Source: [Clostridium] clostridioforme AGR2157
GTDB taxonomy: Bacteria > Bacillota > Clostridia > Lachnospirales > Lachnospiraceae
DNA length: 64,000 nucleotides
NCBI RefSeq assembly: GCF_000424325.1
Contig: NZ_AUJR01000020.1
Span: 1 to 64,000 of the forward strand
Reading direction: 5' to 3'
Positions 1-34,517 of the stretch are shown here, one piece after another; the first letter of the stretch is position 1; each line of letters opens with the position of its first letter. The notes below the pieces were generated by a model. That model searched no databases, was not told the origin of the DNA, and saw nothing but the letters and a program-made list of their open reading frames with translations. The translations under genes and the position numbers were made by a program.

Positions 1-317
1 AGCTTTACTCCGTGACAGCGAATGTTTTATCGCCACTTTCACGTCCGTGAGACCTCCCCGGGTACTCACACGTTCTTTCCCACTTATACCTGCCCCGTTT
101 ACTGCTGGCGTTCCGTGCAGTTATTGGACTTTAGTTTGTTAGGCAACCTCATCCACGCTTCACAGCCTATCCGGACAACTTTTACAGGCCAGTGGTTTGC
201 CTCCGGCTTCCTTCAGACCCCACCTCACGATGACGCCCTTGCCATTGGCTGCACCCTTCCCACTGCCGGGCGGGTCAGGGACTTTCACCCGTTAGAACGT
301 GCGCCCGCCGGGCGCAC
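1..317 (-). mobile_element. Group II intron, 5' part (probably class C), cut by left edge
   Basis: Read on the minus strand, the sequence from 317 begins GTGCGCCCGGC, the usual 5' end of a bacterial group II intron. It continues with typical domain I signatures, including a GGTGAAAGTCCCTGA-like segment and, near 45-65, a GGAGGTCTCACGGACGTGA-like segment. The reverse transcriptase/maturase and domains V-VI would lie beyond the left edge. The intron starts three bases after the T-run of an intrinsic terminator, which is the known target preference of class C introns. The apparent plus-strand reading frame across 22-513 is a shadow of this RNA. Confidence 0.8.
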
Positions 318-353: not shown

Positions 354-376
354 TGTTCATCTGCCGCTTACACACC

Positions 377-487
377 TTCTTCTCTCATCCAGACTATACT
401 GTCGGTTTTGGAATCGCACCAAATCAGCCGCCGTAGCGGGTCGCGGACTATTACCGCCGGTAGGGAATCACACCCTGCCCCGAAGAA
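377..487 (-). promoter_or_regulatory. FMN riboswitch (RFN element)
   Basis: The minus strand carries the conserved RFN blocks in order: GGGGCAGGGTGTGATTCCC, CTACCGGCGGTAATAG, a GGTGCGATTCC-type block, then GACAGTATAGTCTGGATGA. The closing helix P1 pairs TTCTTC (487-482) with GAAGAA (382-377). The riboswitch reads toward the left edge, so it should control a riboflavin synthesis or uptake gene beyond it, not the nitroreductase, which lies upstream. Confidence 0.93.
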
Positions 488-579
488 CTTATTTTATTAT
501 AGCTGAATCATAGCACACATGGAGGTGGTTGGCAATAGGCTGCGCCATAATTTCTGCATTTCAGACTTAACGTTCAGAC

Positions 580-4030: not shown

Positions 4031-4501
4031 AAAATCCATCATTCACTGCACGGCAAAGCCCGCTAATAGAAATACACTGATTCCATTAGCCCATGTACTT
4101 AAAATTCCAGCTCTGCCGATGAAGCGCCAGGGGCTGTCCCTGTCCTGTCTTTTACTCCGTACAATGCTTCATCTTATCCATTTGTCCGGAGCGTATCCAA
4201 TGCACAGTTTCATGATGTTTAACCTTTTCGAATTCAAATATGATTCTTTTATTGTAACCTGCCGCACAGGAAGTGTCAAGGCCGGCTTCACAACAGATTA
4301 TCCCGAAACTCCCTCGCCATCTGTTCCTGCCATCCCCCTCCACAGGTCCCCTGGGCCAGCCTGGCCAATGCCTCGCCGGGGAACCGGCGCCACATACAAA
4401 TTGCCCCCTCTCCCCTCGTTCATGCATAAAACAGCATGGACAGACATAAGATTACTCCAGGACCCATATTTCCCGAAAGGGTGTCAGGAGGCGGTTATAC
4501 C

Positions 4502-30917: not shown

Positions 30918-32600
30918 TTAATTAATTTTCAAGTCCGTATCGTCAAAAGCATCCGCAATGGGCGCTCCCGGCGATACCATGGGGAATACCTTATCATCGC
31001 AGCTGATCTGACAGTCAATGACCACAGGAATGTTTAAGGAGATGGCTTCGCGGAGCACCGGCTCCAGCTCTTCCTTCTGCGTCACACGGTAAGCCCTGGC
31101 TCCCATGGCCTCTGCGATCTTCACAAAATCCACCGAATCATTCAGTATGGTCTGGGAATAACGCTTGCCGTAGAACAGGGTCTGCCACTGGCGTACCATG
31201 CCCAGCACATGGTTGTTTACAATGACCTCCACCACCGGGATATTATACCGGGTGGCCGTGGCAATCTCGTTCATGTTCATGCGGAAGCAGCCGTCGCCTG
31301 CAATGTTGATGACCGTCTTATCCCTGCATCCCATCTTTGCGCCGATGGCAGCGCCCAGGCCATATCCCATGGTTCCCAGTCCTCCCGAAGTAAGGAGGGT
31401 GCGGGGCTGGCGGTACTGGTAGTACTGAGCCGCCCACATCTGGTGCTGCCCCACCTCAGTGACAATGACAGCGTCCCCGCCAGTCACCTCGTTGATGGTC
31501 TGTACGATGAAAGGACCTGTGAGCAAGTTCTTATCATAGCGCAGCGGGTACATATCCTTCATACGCTCTATATGGGCTATCCACTCGTCGTGGTTCACCG
31601 GGTCCAGCCTGGCATTCAGCTTGCGCAGGATGACCTTCACGTCGCCAATGATGCTGGCGTCCACCTTGATATTCTTGTTAATCTCCGCCGGGTCGATGTC
31701 CAGCTGGAGAATCTTTGCATTCTTTGCAAACTTGGATGCGTTGCCGGTCACACGGTCGCTGAACCTGGCGCCCACCACAATCAGCAGGTCGGCCTCGGTT
31801 ATGCCGAAGTTGGAGGTCTTGGTGCCGTGCATGCCCGCCATGCCTGTGTACAGCTCGTCAGCCCCGTCAAAAGCGCCCTTTCCCATAAGGCTGTCTGCCA
31901 CCGGCGCCTGAATCTTATGGGCAAATGCCCTCAGCTCGTCGGACGCATTGGACAGCACAGCACCGCCGCCCACAAAGATAAACGGCTTTGCCGCCTTGCG
32001 GATCATCTCCACGGCCCGGTCCATATCCTGCTCTGTAATGGTATCGCTCTGGTGCACGATTTCCTCCGGAACCCGCTTCTCATATTCGCAGAGCGCAGCC
32101 GTCACGTCCTTGGTGATATCCACCAGCACAGGTCCGGGACGTCCTGTCTGCGCTATGGTAAACGCCCTGCGGATGACCGTTGCCAGACGTTTTACATCCT
32201 TTACAATAAAATTATGCTTTGTAATGGGCATGGTCACGCCCGTAATGTCGATTTCCTGGAAACTGTCCTTGCCCAGCAGGCTGTTGGTCACGTTGCAGGT
32301 AATGGCCACCACCGGCACGGAATCCATATAAGCAGTAGCGATGCCTGTCACCAGATTGGTAGCGCCCGGGCCGGATGTGGCAAGGCACACGCCCACCTTG
32401 CCGGTGGCCCTTGCGTAGCCGTCGGCTGCATGGGAAGCCCCCTGCTCGTGGGATGTCAGGATATGGGTGATTTCATCCTGATGCTGGTACAATGCATCAT
32501 ATATATTCAGGATAGCGCCGCCCGGATAACCAAATACGGTGTCCACACCCTGTTCCTTCAAACACTCAACTACAATCTCTGCCCCCGTCAATTTGCTCAT
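30918..32600 (-). CDS. ilvB: Acetolactate synthase large subunit
   Basis: This 560-residue thiamine-diphosphate enzyme condenses pyruvate (or pyruvate plus 2-ketobutyrate) in valine, leucine and isoleucine synthesis. The catalytic glutamate region is VFGYPGGAILNIYDALY; the conserved HEQGASHAADGYARATG follows. The ThDP motif starts at NIAGDGCFRMNMNE and ends ...VNN. The length fits biosynthetic, FAD-dependent AHAS. I chose the ATG at 32600 (SKLTGAEIVVECLK) following GGAG; an in-frame ATG at 32624 is possible. No ilvN regulatory subunit is adjacent. It is the last gene of leuB-ilvD-ilvB, separated from ilvD by the cloverleaf element. Confidence 0.95.
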   Translation of the reverse strand: MSKLTGAEIVVECLKEQGVDTVFGYPGGAILNIYDALYQHQDEITHILTSHEQGASHAADGYARATGKVGVCLATSGPGATNLVTGIATAYMDSVPVVAITCNVTNSLLGKDSFQEIDITGVTMPITKHNFIVKDVKRLATVIRRAFTIAQTGRPGPVLVDITKDVTAALCEYEKRVPEEIVHQSDTITEQDMDRAVEMIRKAAKPFIFVGGGAVLSNASDELRAFAHKIQAPVADSLMGKGAFDGADELYTGMAGMHGTKTSNFGITEADLLIVVGARFSDRVTGNASKFAKNAKILQLDIDPAEINKNIKVDASIIGDVKVILRKLNARLDPVNHDEWIAHIERMKDMYPLRYDKNLLTGPFIVQTINEVTGGDAVIVTEVGQHQMWAAQYYQYRQPRTLLTSGGLGTMGYGLGAAIGAKMGCRDKTVINIAGDGCFRMNMNEIATATRYNIPVVEVIVNNHVLGMVRQWQTLFYGKRYSQTILNDSVDFVKIAEAMGARAYRVTQKEELEPVLREAISLNIPVVIDCQISCDDKVFPMVSPGAPIADAFDDTDLKIN

Positions 32601-32631
32601 ATATACTGCACTCCTTTTCTCCATGTTATTT

Positions 32632-32782
32632 GTAACAGTTCAGACGGCGGAAAAATCGGTGCAGAAGCGGGTGTTAAGCTGGCTTATAAAACCAATTCTG
32701 CACCAATTTTTCCATCGGATGGACATCCGATGCTTCTTGACCGGCATTTTCGGTCAAGAAGATGCGCCGTCTGAACTGTTAC
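32632..32782. repeat. Four-helix cloverleaf element between ilvD and ilvB
   Basis: The outer helix is 18 bp and perfect: GTAACAGTTCAGACGGCG (32632-32649) with its complement at 32765-32782. Directly inside, without spacers, come three hairpins. The first is GAAAAATCGGTGCAGAA (32650-32666) with 32696-32712, 16 of 17 paired. The second is CATCGGATG (32713-32721) with CATCCGATG (32724-32732). The third is CTTCTTGACCG (32733-32743) with CGGTCAAGAAG (32751-32761), perfect 11 bp. Only three bases separate the last hairpin from the closing strand. About 110 of 151 bases pair in one four-way junction. I do not recognise a family. It has no coding capacity. Confidence 0.9.
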
Positions 32783-32852
32783 TGTTATTTCATGATGCGC
32801 GCCCCCTACCGCTGCCGCCGGACAGCCCGGTAACGCCCGCAGGCTCCGGAAC

Positions 32853-34517
32853 CTACTTTACCTGCAGCACAGCTCCCCTCTCAGCGGAAGTAACCAGGGA
32901 CGCGTATCTGGCCAGATAACCCGTGGTGACCTGCGGGGTGCGCGGCTGCCACCTGGCTTTCCTGGCCGCCATCTCCTCGTCAGATACCAGCACGTTCAGC
33001 TTATGGTTGTCGATATCAATGGAAATAATATCCCCCTCTTCCACCAGGGCAATGGGTCCGCCCACTGCTGCCTCCGGTGAGGCATGGCCGATGGAAGCGC
33101 CTCTGGAAGCACCGGAGAAACGTCCGTCTGTAATCAGGGCCACCGTGGAACCCAGTCCCATACCGGCAATGGCAGAAGTAGGATTGAGCATCTCCCTCAT
33201 GCCCGGGCCTCCCTTAGGTCCTTCATAACGGATGACCACCACATCTCCGGCCACAATCCTGCCGCCCTTGATGGCATCAATGGCATCCTCCTCGCAGTCA
33301 AATACCCTGGCCGGTCCCTCATGCTTTAACATCTCAGGCGCAACAGCGGAGCGTTTCACCACTGCGGAATCCGGGGCCAGATTGCCCTTTAATATGGCAA
33401 TGCCGCCGGTCTGGCTGTATGGATTCTCCACCGGACGGATAACCTCCGGGTTCTTGTTGACACAATCCTTTATGTTTTCCCCCACGGTCCTGCCCGTGAC
33501 AGTCATGCAGTCCAGGTTCAAAAGTCCCTTCTTGCTGATTTCCTTCATTACCGCATAGATTCCCCCGGCCTCGTTCAAATCCTCTATGTAGGTGGGGCCT
33601 GCCGGCGCCAGATGGCACAGGTTGGGAGTCCTTGCGCTGATTTCGTTGGCAATATCCACGTTCAGCTCCACGCCCGCCTCATGGGCAATGGCAGGAAGGT
33701 GAAGCATGCTGTTGGTGGAGCATCCCAGCGCCATATCCATGGTCAGGGCGTTAATGAATGCCTCTTCTGTCATGATATCCCTTGGGCGTATGTTCTTCTC
33801 GTACATCTCCATCACCTTCATGCCGGCATGCTTCGCCAGCTTGATGCGCTCGGAGTAAACAGCCGGGATCGTGCCGTTTCCCCTGAGTCCCATGCCCAGA
33901 ACCTCGGTCAGACAGTTCATGCTGTTAGCCGTATACATACCGGAACACGAACCGCAGGTAGGACATGCCTTATTCTCAAACTCCTTAACATCCTCCTCGG
34001 ACATATTGCCTGCCGCGTAAGCGCCCACCGCCTCAAACATGCTGGAAAGGCTGGTTTTATGCCCCTTCACATGGCCGGCCAGCATGGGGCCGCCGCTGAC
34101 AAACACCGTCGGCACATTAATCCTGGCCGCCGCCATCAGAAGTCCCGGAACATTCTTATCACAGTTCGGAACCATTACCAGCGCGTCAAACTGATGGGCC
34201 AGCGCCATACACTCCGTGGAATCCGCAATCAAATCCCTGGTCACCAGGGAATACTTCATGCCGATATGTCCCATGGCAATCCCATCGCAGACAGCAATGG
34301 CCGGGAACACCACCGGGGTGCCGCCGGCCATGGCAACGCCCAGCTTCACGGCATCCACAATTTTATCCAGGTTCATATGGCCCGGAACTATCTCATTATA
34401 GGAACTTACAATACCCACCAGAGGCTTTCTCATTTCTTCCTCTGTCATACCAAGAGCATTAAACAGGGACCTGTGGGGTGCCTGCTGCATACCTGTCTTA
34501 ACTGCATCACTTTTCAT
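32853..34517 (-). CDS. ilvD: Dihydroxy-acid dehydratase
   Basis: This 554-residue iron-sulfur enzyme dehydrates 2,3-dihydroxy acids to 2-keto acids, the penultimate step of valine and isoleucine synthesis. Cluster cysteines appear in [10 protein letters not shown] and [17 protein letters not shown]. The conserved [24 protein letters not shown]-like region and the C-terminal GRFSGASRG are present, so it looks complete. AAAGGGG precedes the ATG at 34517. It lies about 50 bases downstream of leuB. Confidence 0.96.

What the first reader, a model, noticed from the sequence alone, without database searches (positions are those of the whole stretch)
32632..32782. Near-perfect four-helix cloverleaf between ilvD and ilvB
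Four helices (18, 17, 9 and 11 bp; three perfect, one with a single mismatch) abut with almost no spacer to form one four-way junction of 151 bases. Both strands can fold. It is non-coding and matches no riboswitch or T-box that I know. It could be a structured RNA in the ilv transcript, a processing or protein-binding site, or a palindromic mobile repeat with a dedicated transposase elsewhere.
Basis: seen in the sequence. Interest (0 to 1): 0.85.

Follow-up and report, generated by a model that had tools for sequence, protein, structure and literature searches.

The report
Jumping DNA with conserved cloverleaf fold
The cloverleaf between two amino-acid synthesis genes is a tiny jumping element, apparently moved by an enzyme encoded elsewhere, and its unusual, well-preserved fold links it to a widespread gut-bacterial "RNA" of unknown function that also looks like a jumping element.

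Summary
The cloverleaf is real (32632-32782; RNA fold z -13.9), but it is not an ilv regulator. It is a 151-bp non-autonomous mobile element (MITE): 18-bp terminal inverted repeats (TIRs) starting GTAACAGTTCAG, flanked by an exact 8-bp duplication, TGTTATTT. Two sister genomes have the empty site with one TGTTATTT; a third holds a 44-bp remnant there. The first 12 TIR bases bound 121 elements fetched from named genomes (63 with exact, 98 with at least 6-of-8 flanking duplications) and six copies of a 1.8-kb IS66-type insertion sequence in Sporofaciens musculi, 6 of 6 with exact 8-bp duplications. An IS66 transposase acting in trans is the likely mover; the window's own genome has no close relative of it.

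The interior is more than a chance palindrome. Across 60 copies, 30 of 61 pairs show two-sided changes (shuffles 14.2). A second TIR-sharing family covaries too, keeps a strand-specific tandem G-A motif (41 of 48) and resembles Rfam's Clostridiales-1 RNA, whose strongest loci themselves show 5-6-bp flanking duplications. The window family's arm A matches Clostridiales-1's arm A. Which process uses the fold is unproven.

The parts
32624..32631 (.). left copy of the 8-bp target-site duplication TGTTATTT
   Evidence: read, checked; a single copy is present at the empty sites of G004 and G015
32632..32649 (+). left terminal inverted repeat GTAACAGTTCAGACGGCG; 5' strand of the 18-bp outer stem
   Evidence: its first 12 bases are shared with IS66-type insertion sequences
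32650..32712 (+). arm A: stem free in sequence but kept paired, capped by a small hairpin with loop G(CTGG)C (loop 32679-32682)
   Evidence: 15 of 16 stem pairs with two-sided changes; loop; matches arm A of Clostridiales-1 loci
32713..32732 (+). arm B: 8-bp hairpin CATCGGATGGACATCCGATG, conserved in sequence
32733..32761 (+). arm C: 12-bp hairpin CTTCTTGACC..GGTCAAGAAG, mostly conserved in sequence
32765..32782 (+). right terminal inverted repeat CGCCGTCTGAACTGTTAC; 3' strand of the outer stem
32783..32790 (.). right copy of the target-site duplication TGTTATTT
30918..32624 (-). ilvB-like acetolactate synthase ORF beside the insertion; the likelier start is the ATG at 32600, with an AAGGAG ribosome site at 32611-32616
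32853..34517 (-). ilvD-like dihydroxy-acid dehydratase ORF on the other side of the insertion

Best explanation
The cloverleaf is a 151-bp non-autonomous transposable element (MITE) that inserted into the ilvD-ilvB spacer and duplicated 8 bp of target. SHOWN: flanking duplication, empty sites, dispersal, and identity of its first 12 TIR bases and its duplication length with IS66-type insertion sequences that carry a single transposase ORF. INFERRED: an IS66-type transposase supplied in trans recognises the GTAACAGTTCAG ends and moves it. SHOWN: the interior keeps its base pairs across copies while arm A changes freely in sequence. INFERRED: since this insertion is absent from 15 of 16 relatives and other copies lie elsewhere, what keeps the fold probably acts on the element as it spreads, not on each host locus; strand-specific features in the sister family and weaker hints in this one point to a folded single strand, RNA or single-stranded DNA, as the selected form. 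In ilv itself the element is probably a bystander that lengthens the spacer just upstream of ilvB.
For: Duplication: exact here. Over 179 elements, flank identity is 0.82 at repeat length 8 and 0.30-0.42 at every other length from 4 to 12. Empty site: G004 and G015 read CATGTTATTTCATGATG with one TGTTATTT; G012 has a 44-bp remnant at the same place. Dispersal: 15 of 98 genomes, the own one included, match by BLAST; with model R1, 44 places in G014 and 2 in the own genome (recounted). Transposase: L139 81-1909 has this TIR at both ends (right end with one mismatch) and encodes P0001, Pfam DDE_Tnp_IS66 E 5e-19. S. musculi has six ~1.8-kb copies, 6 of 6 with exact 8-bp duplications, three of them with an uninterrupted match, and nine TIR pairs 142-144 bp apart. 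In the same genus, G015 has a decayed relative ending in CTGAACTGTTAC. In L139 the IS left end and a MITE right end 5.9 kb apart share an 8-of-8 duplication that neither makes with its own partner end. Fold: (30 of 61 pairs changed on both sides; 196 such cells against 57 in shuffles; slid controls at most 14 pairs and 40 cells); second family.
Against: The own genome has no P0001 relative at E<=0.001. IS66-domain stretches in 6 of 9 genomes searched have no paired ends of this kind nearby; single, unpaired end-like sites with two mismatches lie near such fragments in the own genome (L059) and in G013 (L058). So the transposase is inferred from relatives. Only the first 12 of 18 TIR bases are shared with the insertion sequences. 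P0001 relatives at E<=1e-60 are rare (2 of 397 Lachnospiraceae genomes). L139's insertion sequence has no duplication across its own two ends. Of the 60 aligned copies 21 have an exact 8/8 duplication and 41 have 6 or more matches. RNAalifold with default settings pairs the left TIR with arm B rather than with the right TIR; the cloverleaf came out with ribosum scoring. The strand hint from G-U against A-C changes is mixed: arm A 25 against 10 events, but TIR 21 against 19, arm C 13 against 11, arm B 0 against 6. No clear bias of orientation to flanking genes (25 loci: 10, 4, 6, 5; crude gene calls). No movement was observed.
Confidence: 0.85

Rival explanations
1. A structured RNA of the ilv leader or spacer that regulates or processes the ilv transcript.
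For: It lies in the ilvD-ilvB spacer, just upstream of ilvB, and folds very stably.
Against: None of 16 genus relatives has the full element there: 15 have none and one has a 44-bp remnant. Other copies lie elsewhere, e.g. contig C17 of the own genome. The strand that folds better across the family (50 of 60) is antisense to ilv here. No Rfam match at gathering score.
Confidence: 0.03
2. Mobile element, but the pairing is kept without selection: mutations in one arm are copied to the other by hairpin-templated repair or template switching.
For: Many two-sided pair changes on terminal branches (40: 28 in arm A, 7 in arm C, 3 in the TIR, 2 in arm B); whole arms are lost in short copies (98, 71, 44, 28 bp), as hairpins prone to slippage would be.
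Against: Templated repair should act on all arms alike, yet on internal branches two-sided changes fall 13 in arm A, 2 in its cap, 1 in the TIR, 1 (to G-U) in arm C and 0 in arm B. It does not explain the conserved non-Watson-Crick tandem G-A of the sister family (41 of 48) or the G(CTNG)C cap.
Confidence: 0.15
3. Mobile element moved by a transposase other than the IS66 type.
For: No P0001 relative in the own genome; other families also make 8-bp duplications (recalled).
Against: GTAACAGTTCAG ends, 8-bp duplications and an IS66 gene go together in six copies of one genome; the ends flank an IS66 gene in L139, and one such end lies next to an IS66 gene in a genome labelled Armatimonadota (L216).
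Confidence: 0.06
4. A host small-RNA gene that happens to be repeated (as Clostridiales-1 is typed in Rfam).
For: Strand-specific structural features; arm A similarity to Clostridiales-1 loci.
Against: Copies are flanked by duplications, are absent from the same site in sister genomes and show no clear orientation rule. Clostridiales-1 loci themselves show 5-6-bp flanking duplications.
Confidence: 0.05

Closest known systems
IS66 family, single-ORF insertion sequences (transposase with Pfam PF03050; ISBst12-type by recall)
   Same: first 12 TIR bases GTAACAGTTCAG and 8-bp target duplication
   Different: no transposase gene; no interior similarity to the insertion sequence was seen (not tested systematically); 151 bp instead of ~1.8 kb
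Bacterial MITEs in general (Correia, RUP, ERIC and others; recalled, not tested)
   Same: short, TIR-bounded, duplication-flanked, multi-copy, no gene
   Different: multi-arm fold whose pairs covary strongly across copies, in two TIR-sharing families
Clostridiales-1 RNA, Rfam RF01699 (Weinberg et al. 2010, PMC2864571; table row, its legend and passages seen, not the whole text or the supplement)
   Same: four-way cloverleaf with arm A capped by G(CUNG)C; the window family's arm A matches it on the same strand; a sister MITE family matches the whole model
   Different: closing stem is of the TGATNCC..GGTATCA kind, not the GTAACAG TIR; flanking duplication 5-6 bp, not 8; the window element itself has no RF01699 match at E<=10

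Membership tests
IS66-derived MITE | TIR beginning GTAA and matching an IS66 insertion sequence | tested here: met
   12 of 12 leading bases shared with both ends of six S. musculi copies and with the left end of L139's (right end 11 of 12); the remaining 6 TIR bases differ
IS66-derived MITE | 8-bp target-site duplication | tested here: met
   exact in the window; 179 elements peak at length 8
IS66-derived MITE | empty site in a relative | tested here: met
   G004 and G015
IS66-derived MITE | transposase source in the same genome | tested here: not met
   no P0001 relative in G000 at E<=0.001, only fragments of other IS66 domains; a decayed P0001 relative in G015 of the same genus. This concerns the source of movement; it is not needed for a MITE left behind
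IS66-derived MITE | movement by the transposase in trans | not testable with these tools
   only the shared 8-of-8 duplication of an IS end and a MITE end in L139 bears on it
Clostridiales-1 RNA (RF01699) | covariance-model match at the gathering score | tested here: not met
   no match in the window stretch at E<=10. Sister family: 1 of 20 loci scanned has its element over the score (L093); 9 of 12 scanned at low threshold match full length below it
Clostridiales-1 RNA (RF01699) | arm A with G(CUNG)C-type cap on the RNA strand | tested here: met
   137 kb of control sequence gave one hit, E 0.029
riboswitch, T-box or other catalogued leader RNA | Rfam match at gathering score | tested here: not met
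   the window scan gives only an FMN riboswitch, a group II intron and uup RNA, all elsewhere

The most novel reading that the evidence does not exclude
Lachnospiraceae carry SINE-like elements: a four-way-junction RNA fold of the Clostridiales-1 kind has been captured between the ends of at least two different transposon systems (GTAACAGTTCAG ends with 8-bp duplications, IS66; TGATNCC..AACATCA ends with 5-6-bp duplications, mover unknown). The fold, not the ends, is the lasting unit, and it helps the element spread, for example by acting as RNA or as single-stranded DNA at the replication fork. Clostridiales-1 would then be a mobile element rather than a host small-RNA gene.
Probability: 0.35. 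Interest if true: 0.88.

Novelty: new variant of a known kind. Interest (0 to 1): 0.66.

Why it matters
It turns an apparent ilv riboregulator into a mobile element, and shows that such elements in gut Lachnospiraceae keep an elaborate fold under constraint while most of one stem's sequence drifts, which ordinary MITEs are not expected to do (judgement from recall). It also gives a testable answer to what the Rfam family Clostridiales-1 is: 176 of 397 sampled Lachnospiraceae genomes carry it above the gathering score, and its strongest loci look like insertions. If the fold aids transposition, this is a bacterial parallel to RNA-derived SINEs. Practically, annotators should not read these as cis-regulators.

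Tried and rejected
Plasmid and phage collections: no match to the element. Among the IS66 copies found first in the genus, ends could be identified for one, in G011: TIRs GTAAGCGTCAAATAACAG with an exact 8-bp duplication, so it is not the partner; for the others no paired ends were found. A 4.4-kb TIR pair in L119 with an 8-of-8 duplication was judged chance: poor ends, T-rich repeat, housekeeping-type genes between. Orientation rule relative to genes: none found with a crude ORF caller. A clear strand preference from G-U against A-C counts: not established for the window family. The idea that Clostridiales-1's best loci carry the IS66 TIRs was tested and is wrong: the 30 loci have other ends. 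Papers: searches for MITE with IS66 and Clostridium, ISBst12, miniature inverted-repeat with IS66, with Lachnospiraceae, MITE with Roseburia, the 12-base TIR, 'Clostridiales-1 RNA', miniature inverted-repeat with Rfam, and RF01699 gave listings (titles and starts of abstracts) in which I saw no report of this element or of Clostridiales-1 as mobile. I opened two papers for passages only (PMC2864571; PMC4383904). The eight papers on MITEs and IS66 were not opened, so IS66-derived MITEs in other bacteria may well be described there. The library holds open-licence papers only.

Full report
OBSERVATION.

IT IS AN INSERTION. At the orthologous ilvB-ilvD spacer, 16 of 16 genus relatives could be compared. 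G004 (97% identical over 501 bases of ilvD) and G015 (91%) read through CATGTTATTTCATGATG with a single TGTTATTT, that is, the empty site. G012 has at the same point a 44-bp remnant with both TIR ends. The other 13 have no element; the spacers as printed, which include a few coding bases, run from 47 to 120. The window's own genome has a second full copy on another contig (91%, between what look by eye like transporter genes) and two fragments of 34 and 28 bases.

IT IS ONE OF A LARGE FAMILY. DNA search found matches in 15 of 98 genomes: 14 of the genus, the query genome included, and G035 of the same family (at most 8 candidates scored per genome). With a covariance model (R1), 5 of 7 genomes gave matches: 44 places in G014 (61 rows, both strands, overlaps merged; recounted), 3 in G012 and 2 in the own genome, none in G004 or G015 (150 candidates scored per genome, so lower bounds). 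G014's contig length equals that of CP102272.1, [Clostridium] asparagiforme DSM 15981, so the genus is Enterocloster by inference. Of these 63 have an exact 8-bp duplication, 98 have at least 6 of 8, and one lies at a contig edge. Seven stretches carry labels far from Clostridia (Omnitrophota 5, Armatimonadota 1, Bryobacterales 1); the rest are labelled Lachnospiraceae or their genera, or more loosely. By blastn the interiors fall into 16 clusters (48, 20, 13, 12, 11, 4, 3, 2 and eight singles); 23 of 31 interiors tested, ends trimmed, fold with z below -3. Across 179 elements the flank identity is 0.82 at repeat length 8 and 0.30-0.42 at other lengths; the 84 exact duplications are 75% A+T against 57% in flanks.

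WHAT MOVES IT. In L139 (Roseburia inulinivorans) the same TIR starts an insertion sequence at 81-1909 (right end with one mismatch) with one ORF, P0001, matching Pfam DDE_Tnp_IS66 (E 5e-19) and NCBIfam transpos_IS66 below its cut-off (132.9 against 180 bits). Its own two ends show no duplication. Searching 12 genomes that hold MITEs found P0001 relatives in 6. S. musculi has six copies of 1814-1817 bp, each with TIR GTAACAGTTCAGCCTTGCGA and an exact 8-bp duplication, three with an uninterrupted match, and nine TIR pairs 142-144 bp apart plus one of 101. G015, of the window's genus, has a decayed relative followed by CTGAACTGTTAC. In L139 the insertion sequence's left flank and a MITE's right flank 5.9 kb away share ATTTGCAT 8 of 8, while the MITE's own flanks match 1 of 8; this reads as joint movement of an IS end with a MITE end, though it is one case among many pairs screened. 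Against: the own genome has no P0001 relative; its other IS66 fragments have no paired ends of this kind, though an unpaired end-like site with two mismatches lies near one of them (L059); and such transposases are rare (2 of 397 family genomes at E<=1e-60).

THE FOLD IS UNDER CONSTRAINT. Sixty distinct copies (A1) were counted on the cloverleaf: 92.5% of cells pair; 30 of 61 pairs have two-sided changes (shuffles 14.2 +/- 1.9, slid partners at most 14); 196 such cells (57 in shuffles, at most 40 slid). Arm A has two-sided changes at 15 of 16 stem pairs (6 of 12 in arm C, 2 of 8 in arm B, 4 of 18 in the TIR stem). On a parsimony reading internal branches carry 13 two-sided changes in arm A, 2 in its cap, 1 in the TIR, 1 (to G-U) in arm C, none in arm B; terminal branches 28, 0, 3, 7 and 2. 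Templated arm-to-arm repair remains a rival but does not by itself predict this split. RNAalifold's default consensus differed (left TIR with arm B); with ribosum scoring it gave the cloverleaf. Short copies of 98, 98, 71, 44 and 28 bp have lost arms but keep the ends.

A SISTER FAMILY AND A KNOWN RNA. The largest other cluster (48 elements, A2) shares the TIR and the capped arm A: 38 of 60 pairs change on both sides (shuffles 25.7, slid at most 27), 422 cells against 134 in shuffles and at most 111 slid. The cap reads G(CTNG)C in 56 of 60 window-family copies; G(CTTG) or G(CTCG) in 38 of 48 of the sister family. Inside a covarying helix the sister family keeps ATGAG/CGAAT, a tandem G-A motif, in 41 of 48, and G-A on both sides in 43 of 48; the complementary strand would have T-C mismatches, so the + strand is the one that folds. 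The + strand is also the more stable as RNA in 50 of 60 and 43 of 48. G-U against A-C cells in arm A of the sister family are 66 against 43, but 7 against 9 and 12 against 11 in two other helices. That CUUG loops and tandem G-A pairs are known RNA motifs is recalled; stable DNA versions are known too (recalled), so RNA against single-stranded DNA is not settled.

Rfam RF01699, Clostridiales-1, matches sister elements full length, 3 bases inside each end: L149 38.5 bits; L093 48.8 bits, the one of 20 loci over the gathering score of 48; and 9 of 12 loci scanned at low threshold, four of these 12 also, at E 2e-6 to 7e-3 (L107, L110 and L168 not). Weinberg et al. 2010 list it as probably RNA, not cis-regulatory, not a switch (PMC2864571; table row, legend and passages). 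In 397 Lachnospiraceae genomes 176 have it over the cut-off and 215 at E<=0.001. Its 30 best loci do not have GTAACAG ends; most begin TGATNCCAGGG. Ten that I folded form a four-way cloverleaf. In the 21 of 30 with a recognisable right end, the flanks agree at 0.71-0.72 for a 5-6-bp repeat at one fixed junction (0.64-0.65 when the same alignment is drawn out to 7-8), against 0.30-0.52 at other settings; in a looser test 15 of 31 loci have a 7-of-8 repeat against 1 of 31 controls. So Clostridiales-1 itself looks like an insertion with other ends. The window family's model matches arm A of five of these loci on the right strand (E 2.6e-5, 2.9e-5, 5.7e-5, 0.007, 0.04 in 145 kb; alignments); the five are close relatives of each other, and one match at E 0.011 lay elsewhere (L299). 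137 kb of control sequence gave one hit, E 0.029. The sister family's model matches 6 of the 30 at E 4e-6 to 0.04. The window element as a whole has no RF01699 match at E<=10, so I do not file it there.

CONCLUSION. Ordinary: a MITE, most likely moved by an IS66-type transposase. Not ordinary: its fold is kept across copies and appears to be shared, in part, with a widespread 'RNA' family that shows marks of mobility and different ends. Who benefits from the fold, and as RNA or DNA, is open; bench tests are listed.

Noticed in passing
L291-L320 (RF01699 loci): Clostridiales-1 RNA loci are flanked by 5-6-bp direct repeats at a fixed junction after ..CCCCAACATC(A) in the 21 of 30 with that right end; Rfam's sRNA looks like a mobile element.
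   Followed up: partly
L209 / L272 (G012:C8:6413-6456): 44-bp remnant of the element at the orthologous ilv spacer: both TIR ends kept, interior mostly lost.
   Followed up: partly
L205, L206, L207, L208: Copies of 71, 98, 98 and 28 bp in which arms are missing but the TIRs remain; the 28-bp one is just the two ends as a palindrome.
   Followed up: no
L139 81-5952: IS66-type left end and a MITE right end share an 8-of-8 flanking duplication around 5.9 kb with acyl-CoA-dehydrogenase-like and flavodiiron-like ORFs (names by eye): possible composite transposon.
   Followed up: partly
L204 2200-2226, L139 81-108: Ends of the IS66-type insertion sequence are themselves TIR hairpins (GTAACAGTTCAGCC, four bases, GGCTGAACT).
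   Followed up: no
L092, L111, L124, L142, L174, L146, L162: The same 12-base TIRs in MAGs labelled Omnitrophota, Armatimonadota and Bryobacterales; exact 8-bp duplications in 5 of these 7 elements, 6 and 4 of 8 in the others. Wide spread, or binning error.
   Followed up: no
window 67-234 (-), 373-491 (-), 4154-4201 (-): Rfam matches: group II intron D1-D4-3, FMN riboswitch, uup RNA.
   Followed up: no
L055 1265-3786: Another complete IS66 element in the genus, with different TIRs (GTAAGCGTCAAATAACAG) and an exact 8-bp duplication GAATTAAG.
   Followed up: partly
L058 803, L059 2706: Unpaired end-like sites, 10 of 12 bases of GTAACAGTTCAG, near IS66 gene fragments in G013 and in the window's own genome: possible ends of diverged or decayed partners.
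   Followed up: no
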